This document shows positions 6,279 through 20,457 of a stretch of 64,000 nucleotides of DNA, one piece after another; the stretch's first letter is position 1; every line of letters starts with the position of its first letter. Location: the NCBI RefSeq assembly GCF_004768545.1, contig NZ_CP038639.1, positions 186,001 to 250,000 on the forward strand. Reading direction: 5' to 3'. Source of the stretch: Cupriavidus oxalaticus (GTDB taxonomy: Bacteria; Pseudomonadota; Gammaproteobacteria; Burkholderiales; Burkholderiaceae). Under the pieces are notes generated by a model. It saw only the letters and a program-made list of their open reading frames with translations, made no database searches and was not told the origin of the DNA. Made by a program: the position numbers and the translations under genes.

Positions 6279-6575
6279 TCAGGCTACCTCAACGTACCTC
6301 AGCAAGGCGCGGAATCCAAAGATGCGTCCGTCAGGATGCAGCGCCAAGCCTCGCTCGAGCCACCGATAGAGCTGTCGACGGTCCACGCCGGTTGCCTTCT
6401 CAATTTCCTTGACACTTTCGCCGCTCGCGTAACGCTCGATGGCCTGTACTCTGACCTTTGTGACCTCGCGCACTTCGGCGTCAAGCTCCGTCCAGGCTAT
6501 GCTAGGCCAAGCGTTCAAATCGAGGGATTGGAGCTCAGGCTTTCGGCGAGGCATCATCGGACTCCCTGACTGCAA
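6279..6575 (-). pseudogene. tniA: tniA/tnsB-like transposase, N-terminal fragment
   Basis: This 98-residue piece is the DNA-binding N-terminus of the transposase of the Tn7-like module. It has a helix-turn-helix (SGESVKEIEKATGVDRRQLYRWLERGL) followed by DGRIFGFRALLRY. It stops at the right end of the IS3 element, where the TGA is formed by IS sequence. It overlaps the tnsA-like gene by 41 bases, as expected in a compact transposition operon. The remainder of the protein lies beyond the IS at 5049 and 4250. Confidence 0.7.
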
Positions 6576-11794: not shown

Positions 11795-11924
11795 GACTAT
11801 CGCCGTCCGGGCAAGCCGCGCATGATGCAATTGCCTGTGCACGAGTTCATCCGGCGCTTCCTGTTGCATGTGCTGCCTCGCGGCTTACAGCGGATTCGCC
11901 ATTACGGGCTGCTCAGCAATCGAC
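11795..11924 (+). pseudogene. Inverted 3' segment of IS91 transposase
   Basis: Read on the plus strand this 130-bp segment encodes DYRRPGKPRMMQL..., then FIRRFLLHVLPRGLQRIRHYGLLSNR. That is exactly the conserved C-terminal part that should follow ...HVRFRWK in IS91 transposases. The minus-strand transposase breaks off right after FRWK at 11925. Flipping the segment restores K-DYRRPGKP... and then PNPLRYQA with a stop near 11771. The segment is therefore inverted in place rather than missing. Confidence 0.8.
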
Positions 11925-12776
11925 CTTCCAGCGAAACCTCACGTGCTCGTCGCTCAGGTCAAGCAGGCGGCTGTTGGAGATCGCGACGCGATGTGTGTAC
12001 CGGCCGAGATAGTCGAGGACTTGCTGTGGGCCGCCGAATGGCTCCTTGGCATAGACGACCCATTCGGCGTGGCGCGGGCCAGAGAGATAGCGGGCAAATT
12101 CACGCGGCTCAGCCAGATGCCCCAGCGACGAGAAGAACTGCAGTTCGCCGGCTTCGAAAGCGCGTTGCAGTCGCTCGAGGAACAGCCGCCGGAACAGGCG
12201 CGAGAGCACTCGCACGGGCAGGAAAAACCCGGGCCGGCAAGCAATCCAGCGCTTGCGGTCAAGGGAAAGACCGCCGCCGGGGACCACGCAGTGCAGGTGC
12301 GGGTGATGCACCAGATTCTGCCCCCAGGTGTGCAGGATCGCGATGAAGCCGATGGTCGCGCCGAGATGTCTTGGGTCGGCAGCGATTGTTTGCAACGTGC
12401 CGGCGGTGGCTTGGAACAGGATGTCATAGACTACCCGCTTGTTCTGGAAGGCGATTGCTGCCACCTCCTCGGGCACAGTAAAAACGACGTGAAAGTACGG
12501 CACGGGCAATAGGTCGGCTTGGCGGTCATCGAGCCATTGCGCGCGGGCGAGTGACTGGCACTTGGGACAATGCCGGTTGCGGCACGAATTGTAGGCAATG
12601 CGTTGGTATCCACAGGCGTCGCACTGCTCGACGTGTCCGCCCAGTGCAGCCGTACGGCATTGCTCAATGGCGCGCATGACGCGCCGCTGCTCGCGACTGA
12701 GTGCGTCAGCGTGCAGTGCTCTGTAGGTCAAGCCGTGGCGGCGCAAGACGTCCGCCAGTTCCAACTGTGCAGCCAT
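11913..12776 (-). pseudogene. IS91-family transposase, C-terminus broken by inversion
   Basis: This is a rolling-circle (HUH) transposase. It has the N-terminal zinc-finger region (CDACGYQRIAYNSCRNRHCPKCQ), the HUH-type motif (HHPHLHCVVPGGG) and the downstream YLGRYTHRVAISNSRL tyrosine region. The last genuine residues are VRFRWK at 11925. The frame then runs into inverted DNA and stops after three alien residues. Restored, the protein would be about 335 aa. It is transcribed after the adjoining integrase-like gene. Confidence 0.85.
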
Positions 12777-12785
12777 GATCGCCGG

Positions 12786-13664
12786 TCAACGGTGCGCGGG
12801 CTGCTGCTCGGAGTCGAGGGGCGTGATGGGGTGCTGGGGGAGGCGGTCGAATGGACTGGTCGTCGCGCAGACGGTGCTAGTCGCGATCTTGAGGTAGCGC
12901 GAAGTGGTGGTAAGACTCCGGTGACCGAGTAGTAATTGAATGGTGCGCACATCGGTGCCGGATTCCAGCAGGTGCGTCGCAAATGCATGCCGCATTGCGT
13001 GCGGGGTGATGGGCTTGCTGATGCCGGCGCGACAGCGGGCGTCATGGCAAGCGCGTCTGAGGGTACTGGGGTCGATGGGCCGATCCGGGAAGCGGCCGGG
13101 GAACAGCCAGTGCTGCGGTCGGCCAAGGCGCCAGTAGCTGCGCAGGATATCTAGCAGTCGCGGCGAAAGCATAACGTAGCGGTCGGAATGCCCCTTGCCC
13201 TGCTCGACGCGCAGCACCATGCGCTGACTGTCGATGTCGCTGACCTTCAGGCGGGTCGCTTCCGAGATCCGCAAGCCGGCGGCATAGGCCGTCATCAGGA
13301 TCGCGCGGTACTTGACGCTACGAATGGCATCAAGGAAGCGCGTCACTTCATCCGGACTGAGAATGACCGGGAGCTTGTGCGGTTGCTTTGACATCACAAT
13401 CTCTTCGATTGCCAAGTGGCGTTTGAGCGTGACGTTGTAAAGAAAGCGCAGTGCGGCGGTGGCCACAACAAGCGTGCTGCGCGAGCGGTGGGCTTCAATC
13501 AGATGCAACTGCCAGGCACGGATCTCCTCGGGCCCCAGCAGCGCGGGCGAGCGCCCGAAGTGCTCGGCGTAGGCACGAACATATTGGAGATAAGCCCGCT
13601 GAGTATTGGCTGCGAGGTTGCGCACGCGCATATCCTCGATCATGCGTCGACGTAATGCTGTCAT
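12786..13664 (-). CDS. Tyrosine recombinase accompanying IS91 transposase
   Basis: A phage-integrase-type recombinase of 292 aa. The N-terminal SAM-like core-binding domain runs MIEDMRVRNLAANTQRAYLQYVR... The catalytic residues are in TAYAAGLRISEATRL (Arg), HAMRHAFATHLLE (His-x-x-Arg), LLGHRSLTTTSRYLKI (His and Tyr). The ATG at 13664 is preferred over 13742 because it follows a GGAG and matches the family start. Such genes sit upstream of IS91 transposases in one IS91 subgroup; their role in movement is not settled. Confidence 0.9.
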   Translation of the reverse strand: MTALRRRMIEDMRVRNLAANTQRAYLQYVRAYAEHFGRSPALLGPEEIRAWQLHLIEAHRSRSTLVVATAALRFLYNVTLKRHLAIEEIVMSKQPHKLPVILSPDEVTRFLDAIRSVKYRAILMTAYAAGLRISEATRLKVSDIDSQRMVLRVEQGKGHSDRYVMLSPRLLDILRSYWRLGRPQHWLFPGRFPDRPIDPSTLRRACHDARCRAGISKPITPHAMRHAFATHLLESGTDVRTIQLLLGHRSLTTTSRYLKIATSTVCATTSPFDRLPQHPITPLDSEQQPAHR

Positions 13665-13823
13665 GGTGAACTCCTCTCGAGATGGACGAGGCAGAACTGC
13701 ACTGCCATCGTCGCATTGGAGAAGAGTTGCCCGACGAGCCAAGCCAAAGCCCGTGTCGCCGGCCGACCACCTACTACCGCGTCAGCGGTTTAGTTCAACG
13801 CGTATTCTCAGGCTTGAATTTTT

Positions 13824-14149: not shown

Positions 14150-14223
14150 AGTGTAATTCTTTGGTCCGCAAATACAGTCAACGGGTTCTCCACAGGGGCT
14201 ATGGTGTAAGGCGTTGGCCCGCA
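14150..14223 (+). repeat. Two outlying replication iterons downstream of parB
   Basis: Two 21-bp copies start at 14150 and 14203. Both carry the GTGTAA...TTGG(T/C)CCGCA pattern of the main iteron array at 19.6-20.2 kb, in the same orientation, 53 bases apart. They sit in the 700-bp stretch between the IS91 element and parB, where no gene is seen. They may bind Rep (a handcuffing or incompatibility site), or be the edge of an older, larger array. Confidence 0.7.
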
Positions 14224-14422: not shown

Positions 14423-15502
14423 TCAGGTTACGTCCGTTGCCGACTGCGGTGCAAATTTGGCCTTGAGCTCCTCTACAAGCGCCTGGCGTTGAGCGGGATC
14501 CTTTAGGGTAATCTCAAACGAGACCTTTCCGGAGTCCCAGTCCTTCAGAACGCCAAGCGGCGAGCCGTCTGCGCCCAGGAGACGGTGCTGTCGAGAGGTC
14601 TCCTTCTGCTTACGAGCCGTTTTGCTTTCGTATCGGGCCCTCGCCTCTTCCACGTCGCGGCATACTGCGACCTCGTCGCGCACCTTGATCGCCATGACTC
14701 CCGCCACCGCCGGGCCGGCAACGCGCTCAAGCAAAGTCAATTGGTACAGCGTGGAAAGCGCAAAAGGCTCCGGTGCCTCCTTGACGGTGTCAAGCACGCT
14801 GTCGGAGAGCTTCAGGATGGCCAGCGTCTTGTTGATATTGGGCAAGGACATGCCGGTGACCTCCGCGATGGCGGATTCGTTCGGGTAGATACCTTGGTCA
14901 ATCAGGGCGCGCCATGCGAGAGCATTGTCCAACGGAGACTGCGCTTCGCGCTCGGCATTTTCCTTGTAGGAAAGCTGATACAGCTGCTGATCGGTGAGTT
15001 CCGGATGCACCAGCAGCTTCATGCGCTGGATCCCCGCAACTTTTAGCGCTTTGAAGCGATAGTGACCGCCAGCCAGTACTCGACGGCCGTTGCGGATCGT
15101 CGCGATCCCAGGAACGAGCTGACCGTCTGCACGCATACTCTCTGCGAGCTCATGGACGCGCTCCGGGCGATAGAGTCGTCGAGCGTTGAACGGATTCTCG
15201 TCAATGGTTCCAATGTCCGCTTCTTCGTAATACGGCTCATTGGAAGCGCGGGGAATTGCCCTCGATATGTCCTTCTTCCGGCCCTCTTCCCGCGGCGCAA
15301 CGGCACTCTCGTGTGAGAAATCCGCGCGCAGAATCTCGGCAGTGGGTTGCGTGTCGTGCGCAGGCTCAATCTGCTTTTCTGAGAAGCCCGTAGGTTGGCG
15401 CTCCACCAATGCTTGCGCCCGTGCGAAACGGTCAGCAGGCGGCGCAGCATTGACGGCTTTGGTGGCTTGCTCCCGCAGTTGCTCAAGGCGATTCTTAGCC
15501 AT
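14423..15502 (-). CDS. parB: ParB partition protein
   Basis: A ParB/Spo0J-family centromere-binding protein of 359 aa. The ParB N-terminal nuclease-like/CTPase domain is recognisable (DENPFNARRLYRPERVHELAESMRADGQLVPGIATIRNGRRVLAGGHYRFKAL), with the ENAEREAQSPLDNALAWRALID segment. A helix-turn-helix follows (NESAIAEVTGMSLPNINKTLAIL). Its start overlaps the parA stop (ATGA-type overlap), so the two are translated together. It likely binds the palindrome array upstream of parA. Confidence 0.9.
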   Translation of the reverse strand: MAKNRLEQLREQATKAVNAAPPADRFARAQALVERQPTGFSEKQIEPAHDTQPTAEILRADFSHESAVAPREEGRKKDISRAIPRASNEPYYEEADIGTIDENPFNARRLYRPERVHELAESMRADGQLVPGIATIRNGRRVLAGGHYRFKALKVAGIQRMKLLVHPELTDQQLYQLSYKENAEREAQSPLDNALAWRALIDQGIYPNESAIAEVTGMSLPNINKTLAILKLSDSVLDTVKEAPEPFALSTLYQLTLLERVAGPAVAGVMAIKVRDEVAVCRDVEEARARYESKTARKQKETSRQHRLLGADGSPLGVLKDWDSGKVSFEITLKDPAQRQALVEELKAKFAPQSATDVT

Positions 15503-16218
15503 TATGCTGCCTCCTTCTGCTTGGCCGCTGCGGTCTTAGCCTTGACCGGCTTCTTCGCCGTGGTGATACCCAGCTTGGTGAGTACAGCCTTTGCCAGTTC
15601 CTCTACCTCCTTAGTCGCTGCGGAAGATCCCGATAGGCCGTGGACACTGAGCCCAAACATCTGCGACTCCCCGTAGGCATTTCTTTGTTGCAGACCCGTG
15701 TCCAGTAGCGGGATTTCCTCGTCGCCTTGCAGGATTTCGGTACAAGCTTTGAAGACGTTTCCGCGGCGCGACATCGACGGAATGCAGTAGGTCTGAAGTT
15801 CCGGATTCTCTTCCTTTGCCCGGCGCGCCAGTTCCTTCGCCTCACGGCTAGCCCAGACGTTGTCCATCAACGGGATAACCGGGATCAACGCCAAGTCCGA
15901 GATATTTAGTGCTGCCCACGGAATCGATGATTCGATCGCCGGCGGGCAATCGATCAGGACAACGTCGTAGTTCTCCGCGTGCTTGGCGATTTCGCCAATC
16001 AGCTTTTCCCGAAGTGGCGCCAGGCTGATTACAGTTGCCGGGAACGGCTTCTCGACGCCGCCCTGCCCTGCCCAGATCGTGCTGGTGCCTTGCTTGTCCA
16101 TATCGACAAGTAGTGCCCGAAGGCCGCGCAAGGCGAAGCTGGCCGCAAGCTGCATCGAGACCATCGTCTTCCCGCAGCCGCCTTTTTGATTGAAGACGGT
16201 GACAACCTTTGCGGTCAT
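15502..16218 (-). CDS. parA: ParA partition ATPase
   Basis: A deviant Walker A partition ATPase of 238 aa: VVTVFNQKGGCGKTMVSMQLA at the N-terminus, LLVDMDKQGTSTIW, and DVVLIDCPPAIESS as Walker B. It has no N-terminal regulatory domain, so it belongs to the short ParA class (type Ib). The ATG at 16218 (MTAKVV) is preferred over 16251 because the fold starts there. It drives plasmid movement with ParB. The array of palindromes lies directly upstream of its promoter. Confidence 0.92.
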   Translation of the reverse strand: MTAKVVTVFNQKGGCGKTMVSMQLAASFALRGLRALLVDMDKQGTSTIWAGQGGVEKPFPATVISLAPLREKLIGEIAKHAENYDVVLIDCPPAIESSIPWAALNISDLALIPVIPLMDNVWASREAKELARRAKEENPELQTYCIPSMSRRGNVFKACTEILQGDEEIPLLDTGLQQRNAYGESQMFGLSVHGLSGSSAATKEVEELAKAVLTKLGITTAKKPVKAKTAAAKQKEAA

Positions 16219-16298: not shown

Positions 16299-17508
16299 CT
16301 TTCAAGCATGAAAGCAAACAAATTCCCCTTAGGCGTTGCACATGGGCCACAACTAAAAATTGTATGTGAACGATGAGTCGTCTCGCTTTTGGTGCTTGGC
16401 GATAGCGTGGGGAAATCTTTTATGGTTGTTGTTTGAAGGCGTTGCCAGTCCAGACTTTCACGCGTGAAAGCTCGCAAGTTGTCCCGCCCGCAGAGAGCTG
16501 CCCGGCTATGCCGGCTTTCAACGGAACAACTTTCATGTTTGAAAGCGCGGCAATCACCGTGGCCGAGATCCATTTTTTCCGTGAACGCCCCCGCCTCCAG
16601 GACCTCAGCAAAGCCAACTACGACGACGTCAATGATTTCCACCGGCCTGAACTTTCACGCTTGAAAGTACCCAACCGGATGGAGCCCGCCGCTGACCGCG
16701 AGGTTTCATGCTTGAAAGCCGAAGGAGCTGCCGATGGATTTCTACCGGAGAGTGAACTTTCACGCCTGAAAGTGCCCGCACGAAGTCCACCGTTTACCAC
16801 AAGGGTTGCCGGGTTGCTACCGGCCTGAACTTTCAGGCTTGAAAGTAGGCAACCGAATGAAGTCCGCCGCCGGTGACCTCGAGGTTTCATGCTTGAAAGC
16901 CGAAGGAGTTGCCGCTGGAATTCTAGAGGAGACTGACTTTCACGCTTGAAAGTGGCCCCGCACGGGACCCACCGCTGATCAGAAGGTTTCATGCTTGAAA
17001 ACTTAGCGAGCCATCAATCCGAGAGCATGGCTACTTTCAAACTTGAAAGTAGCCACCTCTGCGCCCGGCATTGACGTTTTATGCCTGAAGGTAAGCTCGA
17101 CACTGCGGCCGAATCCACGTCCCAGAATACCGCTCGACACGAACCGCTTCGCGTCGACTTTCAAACGTGAAAGCTTCAAAGGCAAAACCTGTTGAGGCTC
17201 GCGTTCCGAACCAGGTTCAGGACGAGGATGCAGGCACCGAGCTTTCACGATTGAAATCTGCGTGAGATCCTACCCAAGGCGGACTTTCAAGCGTGAAAGT
17301 ATTGGGAGCATGCCGGAGTAGCCTCGCGATGGTTTCATGCTTGAAAGCATCCAGGGCCGTGACGCGGCATGGAGACGGCGAAGGCGGGAACACCCACTGG
17401 AACTGCTGCCCGCGAGGTAGTGGCTGGTAGCGCCCCAGCGGCGCCACTTTCATACGTGAAAGTCGTGACCCGATTGTGGTTCGTGCCAATGACTTTCAAG
17501 CGTGAAAG
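16299..17508. repeat. Array of 18 16-bp palindromes (candidate parS)
   Basis: Eighteen copies of CTTTCANNNNTGAAAG, or the variant GTTTCATGCTTGAAAG, start at 16299, 16455, 16530, 16652, 16703, 16757, 16830, 16884, 16937, 16986, 17034, 17076 (degenerate), 17158, 17242, 17284, 17332, 17447 and 17493. Spacing is mostly 42-84 bp. They fill the non-coding gap between parA and rep. The palindrome length and place suggest the centromere bound by ParB; a Rep or regulator operator array is the alternative. The short frames across it are artefacts of the repeat. Confidence 0.9.
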
Positions 17509-17550: not shown

Positions 17551-18885
17551 TTATGCTGCTTGGCGTGCGTCCGACCAGCGCTTAGCGTATTGACCAAGTT
17601 CCAGTTTCAACGCCTTGCGAGCCAAGATGGCAACCTCATCCGGCTTCGCCTTAACCTTTTGCCGGCGAGCAGCCATCTGAAAGGTCGTCTCCTTATACAG
17701 GCCCTCAAGAACTTTCAACCGATCATCAGACCCCAGGGAGTCGAAGATGGCCAATCCCTCCTCGATATCCCTCTCAAGACTTCGCGCGAACTCAATCTCT
17801 GCTGTTGGAACTTTCGGCTCGGCAGCGGACAGGGCAGGCGCATTCCCCGCTGCTGCCTCCCGTTCCATTTCGCTCAAGGCCCAACCTTCGTTAATCGCCC
17901 GCATGAGATAGGCACCTGGTGACTTGACCCCGCCGACCTTTACACGATACTTCACGAGCTCGATCGCGGCGCGGATTCTCTCATCCGTGTTCACCTCGCG
18001 ATTGCTAATGATCTCGTTGATCTGCTTTTTGCTTAGCCCGAAGCCCTTCACAAGGGTCTCGTACAGATCCTTCAGCTCGTGCGGCTGCGCGAAATCCAGA
18101 ACCAGCTTGCCCTCGGCGTTATCCCGAAGCTTGAAACGGATCGCCGCTACTCGACGCGAGCCCGGCGCGGTTTTCGTCTCGTATTCGATGAAGAGATCCG
18201 TCAGCTCATTGATTTGAGCGATGTTCTTATCGAGGACCAGCCGCTTGAACTGCTTGTATTCTGTCAGCGACTTCACGGCATCGGCATTAACCCACTTTCG
18301 GACATCCTCGATTGGAATCCAGCCGGTCGTGCCCATAAAACGAAGCGAGCCAAGCCGCTCATAAAGGATGTAGGCATACTGGCTCAAGGCTGCGGACATG
18401 CGCAACGAGAGATAGGTGTAGCGCTGGGGATCTTTCAACTGCCGACGGATCATCTCATCGACCTTGAACACGACACGCCCACCGGCAATACCTACGGAGC
18501 CCAGCAGCGGCACGGAGACCCATTGCGGATCGCCGCCTGAATCCTCGACAGATACTTGAACGGATGAGGCCTGGCACTCACGCAAAGCCTTCTTCAAATG
18601 CGCAACGTTATTCGACGTTTCAAACTTCGAAAGCCATTTGAAGTAATTCAGTTCGATGTCGTAATGCTCGAGATCCGGATTCTCTGATACGGTGAGCCAC
18701 AAGGCGTTGATAGCCCGCCTGGCCACAAGCGACATCGGTGATACGTCAATCAGAACATTGGTCTTGCGGTAACCGATCTCCCGGGTCGATTCGGTGATTG
18801 CGGTAGTGGGTCCCAGCTCATCGCGCACAGCGTTGAAGATGTCGAAGCCGAGTTGCTCCTGGATGTTCTTCGAGACGTTTGACAT
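17551..18885 (-). CDS. Plasmid replication initiator, Rep_3 superfamily
   Basis: A 444-aa initiator that should bind the iterons beside it and open the origin. The first half is the paired winged-helix Rep_3 fold (RAINALWLTVSEN...YDIELNYFKWL; SLRMSAALSQYAYILYERLG; TEYKQFKRLVLDKNIAQINE). The second half is helical and charged (KVGGVKSPGAYLMRAINEGWAL...). The ATG at 18885 is chosen because the frame upstream runs through the iterons and reads as low-quality sequence. It is transcribed towards the palindrome array. Confidence 0.8.
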   Translation of the reverse strand: MSNVSKNIQEQLGFDIFNAVRDELGPTTAITESTREIGYRKTNVLIDVSPMSLVARRAINALWLTVSENPDLEHYDIELNYFKWLSKFETSNNVAHLKKALRECQASSVQVSVEDSGGDPQWVSVPLLGSVGIAGGRVVFKVDEMIRRQLKDPQRYTYLSLRMSAALSQYAYILYERLGSLRFMGTTGWIPIEDVRKWVNADAVKSLTEYKQFKRLVLDKNIAQINELTDLFIEYETKTAPGSRRVAAIRFKLRDNAEGKLVLDFAQPHELKDLYETLVKGFGLSKKQINEIISNREVNTDERIRAAIELVKYRVKVGGVKSPGAYLMRAINEGWALSEMEREAAAGNAPALSAAEPKVPTAEIEFARSLERDIEEGLAIFDSLGSDDRLKVLEGLYKETTFQMAARRQKVKAKPDEVAILARKALKLELGQYAKRWSDARQAA

Positions 18886-19596: not shown

Positions 19597-20247
19597 GGTG
19601 TAGTTAATTGTGCCGCAGAGCCACGGTGTAGCTCATTGGTCCGCAAGTACGAAGGGCCAGGTGGGCGACATCAGTTGGTCCGCAAAGATAGTTATGGTGC
19701 AACGCGTTGGTCCGCATAGTTGCATCCAAAAGGCCATCCTAGCCTTCAGGCTCCCTAAAGGTGTCATCAGTTGGTCCGCAAGATGGCTATGGTGTAACGC
19801 GTTGGTCCGCATAGTTACTTCCAAAGCCCAATTCGAGTCCCCAGGGCCCTCAATTGCCGCTAAAGGTGTCATCAGTTGGTCCGCAAGATGGCTATGGTGT
19901 AACGCGTTGGTCCGCAAAGCTACTTCCAAAGTCCAATATGAGCCCCCAAGCCCTCAATCGCCGCTAAAGGTGTCATCAGTTGGTCCGCAAGATAGTTTAT
20001 GGTGCAACGCGTTGGTCCGCACAATTGCGAAAGCAAATCCGAGCCCCAGGTCCGCAACCACCGAAATGGATGGGCCCGCAAAGCACTCCGGAGGTGCGGT
20101 ATTAGTATCTTTATGACCAGCGAGCTGCTCGCATCCGCGGAAGGTGTATGGGTTTGGGCCGCAAATGCCGCAAGGTGTGATGGATTGGTCCGCAGAGGCG
20201 GGACGAGGCCAGTCTTGAATGACATTGGTGCATTGGATTGGTCCGCA
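19597..20247 (+). repeat. Iteron cluster B, 13 copies
   Basis: Twenty-one-base copies of GGTGYNNNNNNTTGG followed by TCCGCA start at 19597, 19625, 19664, 19696, 19760, 19791, 19865, 19896, 19969, 20001, 20143, 20174 and 20227. Many occur as pairs 31-32 bp apart, alternating ATCAG and AACGC in the variable middle. They fill DNA without genes between rep and the winged-helix gene. They are the likely Rep-binding and copy-control sites. Confidence 0.88.
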
Positions 20248-20336
20248 GAACTAGTCGAGGCGCCTTTAATAACCCACATTTGGTGCCTGCAAACGAAGGG
20301 AGCGCTCACTACTTCCGCAAAATTTCGCGGACTCTA

Positions 20337-20457
20337 CCAAACCGATGCACCTTTGCACCGAACCGACCGGTTTGCGGACCAAACCGATACACCATCCTCC
20401 AGTGCAATAAGCGGCATATCCGCGGGTACGACGACCTGCGGACCAAACCGATACACC
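20337..20457 (-). repeat. Three inverted iterons
   Basis: Copies in the opposite orientation start at 20337 (core only, CCAAACCGATGCACC), 20373 and 20437. The last two are identical over 21 bases, TGCGG then ACCAAACCGATACACC. They face cluster B and lie just after the stop of the minus-strand winged-helix gene. From 20470 to 20590 the DNA has GC-rich inverted segments built on AAGCGC/GCGCTT. Confidence 0.8.

What the first reader, a model, noticed from the sequence alone, without database searches (positions are those of the whole stretch)
16299..17508. Eighteen 16-bp palindromes between parA and rep
CTTTCANNNNTGAAAG recurs 18 times in 1.2 kb. Some copies alternate with a GTTTCATGCTTGAAAG variant. 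The number is far above usual plasmid parS sites, and the spacing is irregular (42-156 bp), unlike iterons. The two arm variants may mark two binding affinities or two proteins. It may be an unusually large centromere for the short ParA/ParB pair.
Basis: partly seen in the sequence, partly recalled or inferred. Interest (0 to 1): 0.72.

Follow-up and report, generated by a model that had tools for sequence, protein, structure and literature searches.

The report
Plasmid centromere with loose-centred palindromes
A Cupriavidus plasmid carries a row of about 17 copies of a short mirror-image DNA word that almost certainly serves as its centromere, the handle by which copies are pulled into daughter cells; the word shares its two arms with the centromere of the same cell's second chromosome and differs only in the middle four letters, which may be what keeps the two from being mixed up.

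Summary
The array is real. The exact motif CTTTCAN4TGAAAG occurs 12 times, not 18; 17 sites match with up to 2 mismatches. It is very probably the parS centromere of the adjacent parAB operon. In 60 Cupriavidus genomes the 8 with an orthologous ParB are exactly those with 4 or more rule-obeying copies; the other 52 have 0-2. The palindrome follows ParB, not Rep: three plasmids with related Reps but other parAB lack it, and five replicons with the same ParB type but remote Reps have it. Inter-site DNA is not alignable with any relative, yet the palindromes persist.

The unexpected part is the centre. The second chromosome (chromid) of the same genome has parS CTTTCA-GCGC-TGAAAG: identical arms. 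Related parS examined here have a central CG. In this plasmid clade the centre is degenerate, but the middle step is purine-pyrimidine in 57 of 58 sites in 9 replicons, never CG and never GCGC. I propose that the centre separates centromeres with the same arms; one carrier (G058) keeps the rule without a GCGC chromid, so avoidance is not shown. The site number is high but not unprecedented. No binding was tested.

The parts
14423..15502 (-). parB (359 aa, ParB_N + HTH), proposed binder of the array
   Evidence: Pfam PF02195 E 2.6e-7; NCBIfam TIGR00180 E 4.8e-21; sequence relatives with solved structures include Caulobacter ParB 6T1F and KorB 8QA8
15502..16218 (-). parA (238 aa, no N-terminal HTH seen), 1-bp overlap with parB
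   Evidence: PF13614 E 7.4e-20; NF041546 ParA family partition ATPase matched at E 5.1e-43 but below its curated cut-off
16299..17508 (.). parS array: 17 sites with up to 2 mismatches to CTTTCANNNNTGAAAG
16299..16314 (.). site 1 CTTTCAAGCATGAAAG, about 80 bp upstream of the parA start; candidate autoregulatory operator (inference)
16455..16470 (.). site 2, centre CGCG
16530..16545 (.). site 3, centre TGTT
16652..16667 (.). site 4, centre CGCT
16703..16718 (.). site 5, position-1 variant GTTTCATGCTTGAAAG
16757..16772 (.). site 6, centre CGCC
16830..16845 (.). site 7, centre GGCT
16884..16899 (.). site 8, position-1 variant GTTTCATGCTTGAAAG
16937..16952 (.). site 9, centre CGCT
16986..17001 (.). 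site 10, two mismatches, GTTTCATGCTTGAAAA
17034..17049 (.). site 11, centre AACT
17076..17091 (.). degenerate 18th site, three mismatches
   Evidence: seen as a member of family D1; mismatches counted by eye
17158..17173 (.). site 12, centre AACG
17242..17257 (.). site 13, one mismatch, centre CGAT (central step purine-purine)
17284..17299 (.). site 14, centre AGCG
17332..17347 (.). site 15, position-1 variant GTTTCATGCTTGAAAG
17447..17462 (.). site 16, centre TACG
17493..17508 (.). site 17, centre AGCG
16636..16936 (.). two tandem units of about 180 bp carrying partly the same sites (86-89% identical pieces, offset 178-181 bp)
   Evidence: families D4 and D5
17551..18885 (-). rep (Rep_3 initiator, 444 aa), upstream neighbour of the array; not the proposed binder
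   Evidence: PF01051 and PF21205; Rep comparison

Best explanation
The array is the centromere (parS) of a type I ParABS partition locus on a Cupriavidus replicon (contig of 402,635 bp). ParB (14423-15502) binds each 16-bp palindrome as a dimer, one HTH per CTTTCA arm, nucleates a partition complex by loading and spreading, and ParA positions the plasmid copies before division; the site nearest parA probably also lets ParB repress parAB. Seventeen sites arose partly by local duplication. In this ParB clade the four central bases are free except that the middle step is purine-pyrimidine, unlike the central CG of the related parS examined here. The chromid of the same cell uses the same arms with centre GCGC, so the centre is the likely discriminator between the two systems. 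Shown: sites, conservation, co-inheritance with ParB independent of Rep, the centre rule. Inferred: binding, spreading, autoregulation, discrimination.
For: Co-occurrence: 8 of 8 Cupriavidus genomes with the orthologous ParB have 4-14 copies of CTTTCANRYNTGAAAG, 52 of 52 without it have 0-2 (Fisher p 4e-10); in 299 family genomes the 5 carriers drawn have 4 or more and the other 294 have at most 2. Rep dissociation: of the nine plasmid records sharing only the Rep region (H2-H10; 76-79% DNA identity) three were searched whole, pMOL30, HN-2 p1 and pRK1-2; they have other parAB genes and no match even with 1 mismatch. Five of 8 ParB-type relatives have only a remote Rep (about 23-24% aa) and no hit of this Rep at E 1e-20 in the whole genome. 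Position: in all 8 relatives the cluster lies upstream of parA. Selection: array DNA has no blastn hit at E 1e-5 in the 8 relatives (9 loci) although parAB aligns in all at 69-79%, yet each has 5-7 exact sites. Centre rule: 57 of 58 exact-arm sites purine-pyrimidine, background 23%, p 3e-35; deduplicated within arrays 38 of 39, p 2e-23. Related parAB loci carry their own palindromes with central CG. The plasmid ParB clade is one group with 98/97 support (8 rows).
Against: No binding data. One of 58 exact-arm sites has a CC central step (G001); of 10 one-mismatch sites 9, and of 8 two-mismatch sites only 5, keep the rule. Carrier G058 has no TTTCAGCGCTGAAA within 1 mismatch anywhere, while the other 7 carriers have 2-3 exact copies, and its 5 exact sites still obey the rule: so the rule does not need a GCGC chromid with the same arms in the cell, which favours plain ParB preference over avoidance (G058 does have another co-resident parS with centre GCGC but other arms). 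Lone rule-obeying sites occur in 16 of 52 Cupriavidus genomes without this ParB, so relics or another protein must be allowed for. The p values treat sites as independent, which descent and duplication make only partly true.
Confidence: 0.92

Rival explanations
1. The palindromes are Rep-binding sites (iterons or incompatibility elements) that control replication.
For: The array lies directly downstream of rep.
Against: Three plasmids with a related Rep (76-79% DNA identity) but other parAB have none; five ParB-type replicons with remote Rep have them. A separate direct-repeat family, TTGGTCCGCA, lies upstream of rep (13 copies at 19636-20446) and is the likelier iteron set.
Confidence: 0.02
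2. The array is chiefly an operator cluster for a regulator (ParB acting KorB-like as a transcriptional repressor, or another DNA-binding protein), partition being secondary.
For: One site sits about 80 bp upstream of parA; lone sites occur elsewhere on the plasmid (G000:C6:320485) and in other genomes; KorB is a sequence relative.
Against: In the complete USMAHM13 record the only exact sites are the six between parA and rep, and in the C. pauculus record all seven lie within about 1.6 kb upstream of parA; elsewhere these records have three and one sites with one mismatch. An operator set would be expected at many promoters. No promoter-like sequence was found in the array by a sigma-70 scan (0 against a shuffle mean of 0.8; weak evidence).
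Confidence: 0.05
3. Two site classes (CTTTCA and GTTTCA arms) mark two proteins or two designed affinities.
For: Four GTTTCATGCTTGAAA copies share one centre and orientation.
Against: Three of the four lie in a repeated segment; none of the other eight loci has a GTTTCA site within 2 mismatches; position 1 also varies (C/T/G) in chromid parS; ParB residue L220 aligns with Caulobacter R173, which contacts base 1, so no such base-1 contact is expected.
Confidence: 0.04
4. The degenerate centre is merely unread filler, and the plasmid and chromid systems cross-react or are separated by something else.
For: 25 different centres among 58 sites (19 when reverse complements are merged).
Against: The middle step is purine-pyrimidine in 57 of 58 against 23% background; G at position 7 is rare (4 of 116 half-sites).
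Confidence: 0.1

Closest known systems
Bsr (Burkholderiales secondary replicon) ParABS systems, e.g. Burkholderia cenocepacia c2, c3, pBC and Ralstonia pickettii 12J (PMC5450999; parts 1-4 of 5 of the text read)
   Same: 16-bp palindromic parS with T-rich ends, clustered by parAB; HTH ParB; several compatible systems in one cell; tolerance at position 1-16 (except 12J)
   Different: Bsr parS are described with a 2C/2G/1A/1T core including a central CG; here no exact-arm site has central CG and the centre is degenerate
Cupriavidus and sister-genus chromid ParABS with parS CTTTCAGCGCTGAAAG (found here)
   Same: identical six-base arms; ParB about 36-44% identical
   Different: centre GCGC in the chromid loci examined; usually 1-2 exact 16-mers per genome in the listed genomes; ParB has E254 where the plasmid clade has Q254
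Second partition locus of carrier genome G058 (L125, found here)
   Same: related ParB (39%), array of 9 palindromes upstream of parA
   Different: GTTTCGGCGCCGAAAC type: other arms, central CG, E254
IncC plasmid R55 parABS and SGI1 (PMC10954446; abstract and passages)
   Same: many parS (14) on one plasmid; parS copies on other elements
   Different: 22-bp inverted repeat; one site at the parA promoter, others elsewhere on the backbone
F plasmid sopC and RK2 O_B sites (recalled, not checked here)
   Same: about a dozen ParB sites per plasmid
   Different: regular 43-bp repeats (sopC); dispersed KorB operators (RK2)

Membership tests
Type I ParABS partition locus with HTH-ParB | Walker-type ParA gene next to a ParB_N/HTH ParB gene | tested here: met
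Type I ParABS partition locus with HTH-ParB | clustered palindromic sites next to parAB that co-occur with that ParB | tested here: met
   4 or more rule-obeying sites in 8 of 8 carriers and 0 of 52 non-carriers
Type I ParABS partition locus with HTH-ParB | ParB binds the sites and the locus stabilises a plasmid | not testable with these tools
   needs a gel shift or ChIP and a stability assay
Type I ParABS partition locus with HTH-ParB | CTP-dependent ParB clamp | tested here: inconclusive
   R149, N182 and R185 are invariant in the plasmid clade alignment A2, R149 and N182 also in A3; that these match the CTP-binding motifs is recalled; sequence only
Bsr parS family | 16-bp palindrome with T-rich 5' end | tested here: met
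Bsr parS family | core of 2C, 2G, 1A, 1T with central CG (as stated in PMC5450999) | tested here: not met
   central dinucleotides GC 35, GT 9, AC 7, AT 6, CC 1, CG 0 of 58
Bsr parS family | ParB falls in the Bsr phylogeny | tested here: inconclusive
   plasmid clade well supported (98/97), its place among chromid and other Burkholderiales ParBs unresolved and long branches flagged; no named Bsr reference ParB was used
Replication iterons | repeats co-occur with the cognate Rep | tested here: not met
KorB-type global operator set | sites at many promoters across the plasmid | tested here: not met
   exact sites only between parA and rep in W01 and only upstream of parA in W02; one distant exact site in G000:C6

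The most novel reading that the evidence does not exclude
Two centromeres in one cell share identical six-base arms and are told apart by the central tetranucleotide alone: the chromid system requires GCGC (pyrimidine-purine middle step), while the plasmid system accepts almost any centre with a purine-pyrimidine middle step, an indirect (shape) readout linked to the clade-specific change E254Q beside the DNA-contacting helix of ParB. Compatibility would then rest on DNA shape at the dyad and not on base contacts in the arms.
Probability: 0.36. Interest if true: 0.7.

Novelty: new variant of a known kind. Interest (0 to 1): 0.5.

Why it matters
How ParB proteins avoid each other's centromeres in cells with several replicons is an open question in Burkholderiales. 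Here a natural pair has identical arms and differs only at the centre, so the rule can be tested with a handful of 16-bp probes and two ParB proteins. It also gives a marker (CTTTCA-NRYN-TGAAAG clusters) for one partition type that moves between different Rep backbones.

Tried and rejected
Rep/iteron reading rejected. Helical phasing of the sites: none (63% of random placements as coherent). Promoter/terminator scan of the array: nothing found. Literature search for the motif strings: six strings, no paper; searches for parS in Cupriavidus, pMOL30 or Burkholderiales gave listings, and in the papers opened from them (PMC5450999, PMC4948915 passages, PMC13245405 passages) I saw no description of this parS; the DOI that I recall as the paper defining the Bsr families is not held, so the chromid GCGC parS may already be described there. 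My first reading of which ParB residue matches Caulobacter G201 (L252) was wrong; the HMMER alignments give S250 for G201, Y253 for R204 and Q254 for A205 (read off by eye). L252 is no clade marker either: Achromobacter, Bordetella and the second G058 system have L252 with E254 and central CG. A shared neighbour gene for the lone sites was sought and not found, apart from one related H-NS region in two loci of G000 and one weak pair (L093/L095).

Full report
What is there. The window is bases 186001-250000 of a 402,635-bp contig (C6) of a genome in the genus of Cupriavidus (the genome itself is unnamed). On the minus strand the order is rep (17551-18885), the array (16299-17508), parA (15502-16218), parB (14423-15502). 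CTTTCANNNNTGAAAG occurs exactly 12 times; with up to 2 mismatches 17 times; an 18th copy has 3 mismatches. With one mismatch allowed, 16 matches stand against a shuffle mean of 0.09. Start-to-start spacings are 42-156 bp without helical phase. Two tandem units of about 180 bp explain part of the number.

Which protein. Three comparisons point to ParB. (1) Across 60 genomes of the genus, a ParB hit of 69-78% identity in the table, or the split hit of G029 (its ParB straddles the record start; 77% over residues 85-351 in L008), marks 7 genomes besides G000; these 8 have 4-14 copies of CTTTCANRYNTGAAAG (lone copies included) and the other 52 (two of them under 80% complete) have 0-2. The pattern read backwards gives 0 in all 60. 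(2) Rep and palindrome are uncoupled in both directions: pMOL30, HN-2 p1 and pRK1-2, three of nine records that share only the Rep region (76-79% DNA identity), carry other parAB genes and have no match in the whole record with 1 mismatch allowed, whereas the ParB-type replicons of C. pampae, C. pauculus, YR651, U2 and C. agavae have only remote Reps (about 23-24%) and 5-7 exact sites. The other three relatives (USMAHM13, G058, G006) have a related Rep (80%, 66%, 78%; in G006 on another contig). (3) The array sequence has no blastn match to the eight relatives (nine loci; E 1e-5) though parAB aligns in all and rep in two; the palindromes are what is kept.

The other partition systems act as controls. 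The related parAB loci examined carry their own palindromes near parA or parB: Cupriavidus and sister-genus chromids and a Comamonadaceae plasmid CTTTCAGCGCTGAAAG, two Achromobacter plasmids CTTTCACCGGTGAAAG, a Bordetella plasmid CTTGCACCGGTGCAAG, two Polaromonas plasmids TGTTCTGCGCAGAACA, three Burkholderia plasmids TTTCTACGTAGAAA, Piscinibacter GTTTCCACGTGGAAAC, HN-2 p1 GTTGTCACGTAACAAC, and a second system in G058 GTTTCGGCGCCGAAAC. All of these have a central CG, as the published Bsr parS do (PMC5450999, parts 1-4 of 5 read). They are 13 loci of 353 plasmid records with a ParB hit, 18 family loci, the genus chromid loci and L125. The pMOL30 system, whose ParB gives no hit to the window ParB at E 1e-5, has TTTCACNGTGAAA, an odd-length site with no central dinucleotide.

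The centre rule. In the nine plasmid-type loci (window, L005, L082-L087, L098) 58 sites have exact arms; 57 have purine-pyrimidine in the middle, one has CC, none has CG or GCGC. In the window it is 12 of 12. Purine-pyrimidine steps make up 23% of the inter-site dinucleotides (214 of 922). Deduplicated within each array, 38 of 39. Of imperfect sites, 9 of 10 with one mismatch and 5 of 8 with two keep the rule; some of the latter are probably not sites. Position 7 is rarely G (4 of 116 half-sites). In a set of 55 genome and chromid loci (several overlapping), 116 places have TTTCAN4TGAAA: 100 have centre GCGC and vary only at positions 1 and 16; the other 16 fall, by their sequences, to the plasmid arrays of G022 and G029 and to four lone sites in the same set. 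Both kinds exist in the window's own genome: G000:C1 has CTTTCAGCGCTGAAAG and TTTTCAGCGCTGAAAG.

A case that bears on cause. Seven of the eight carriers have 2-3 exact TTTCAGCGCTGAAA; G058 has none within 1 mismatch, yet its five exact array sites obey the rule. It has instead a second related parAB locus with nine GTTTCGGCGCCGAAAC-type sites. So the rule is at least partly an intrinsic preference of this ParB type; whether it was shaped by, or suffices for, separation from the chromid is open.

Protein side. The plasmid ParBs form one group (98/97 support; 8 rows, G058 not included), whose position among the others is unresolved, and the tool warned of long branches among the outgroups. In all 20 plasmid-type rows (redundant; nine proteins) residue 254 is Q; in 78 other rows it is E in 76, the two exceptions being remote or poorly aligned, and E in the second G058 ParB. 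Residue 252 is L in the clade and G in 70 of the 78, but L also in Achromobacter, Bordetella and the second G058 ParB, which have central CG. By the alignments, Y253 matches Caulobacter R204, a DNA-contacting residue, so position 254 flanks the interface; L220 matches R173, which contacts base 1 of the half-site (PMC7383237, sections 9 and 12 and passages), in keeping with loose choice at position 1. This is correlation only.

The number of sites. Carrier relatives have 4-9 rule-obeying exact copies per genome; IncC plasmid R55 is reported with 14 parS (PMC10954446, passages); SCP1 has three per system (PMC13245405, passages). The window's 17 is large but of a known kind.

Loose end. Nineteen lone rule-obeying sites occur in 16 of the 52 non-carrier Cupriavidus genomes, and a few on carrier genomes away from the array. 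Ten proteins next to eight such sites (four of them in carrier genomes) were scanned: AbiEii, Schlafen/AlbA, an AAA ATPase, RES, an rve transposase, H-NS and DUF3739 were found, and three proteins had no family. The sites may be relics or parS copies on islands that use a plasmid's partition system, as SGI1 does with IncC (PMC10954446, abstract). In 259 non-genus genomes of the family 25 have a hit; in 18 of these, all of one genus, it is one recurring GATT/AATC site (one of the 18 has a second site), and the reversed control also hits 10 of the 259, so outside the genus the rest is near background.

Verdict. Ordinary in kind (a ParABS centromere), with an unusual and testable centre rule. No claim of binding is made; what is not in print is limited to the searches, in a library that lacks most subscription journals.

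Noticed in passing
G000:C6:320485-320500 (outside the window), G000:C3:277925, G026:C21:22413 and 35480, G022:C19:89980, G052:C43:64613, and 16 non-carrier genomes: Lone CTTTCANRYNTGAAAG sites away from any array, several next to accessory or mobile genes; more frequent in Cupriavidus than in the rest of the family.
   Followed up: partly
L125 4226-5494 (G058:C6): A second, related ParABS locus in a carrier genome with nine GTTTCGGCGCCGAAAC-type palindromes upstream of parA.
   Followed up: partly
19636-20446: 13 copies of TTGGTCCGCA upstream of rep (11 on +, 2 on -) and one more at 14161: probable replication iterons of Rep.
   Followed up: partly
11913-13742: IS91-type Y2 transposase gene beside a tyrosine recombinase gene, both on the minus strand.
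   Followed up: no
L088 2783 and 3632 (G000:C1): Chromid parS pair of the same genome: CTTTCAGCGCTGAAAG and TTTTCAGCGCTGAAAG, about 850 bp apart; the second lies within the parB match.
   Followed up: yes
L087 3249-4300 (G058): The plasmid-type ParB of this genome is matched in two pieces in two reading frames (residues 1-48 and 54-352): a frameshift or sequencing error.
   Followed up: no
L006 2241-3131 (pMOL30): pMOL30 has its own array of eight TTTCACNGTGAAA palindromes between parB and rep, a ninth at 6532.
   Followed up: partly
L083 2995 (G006): One palindrome lies directly after the parB gene, apart from the cluster upstream of parA.
   Followed up: no
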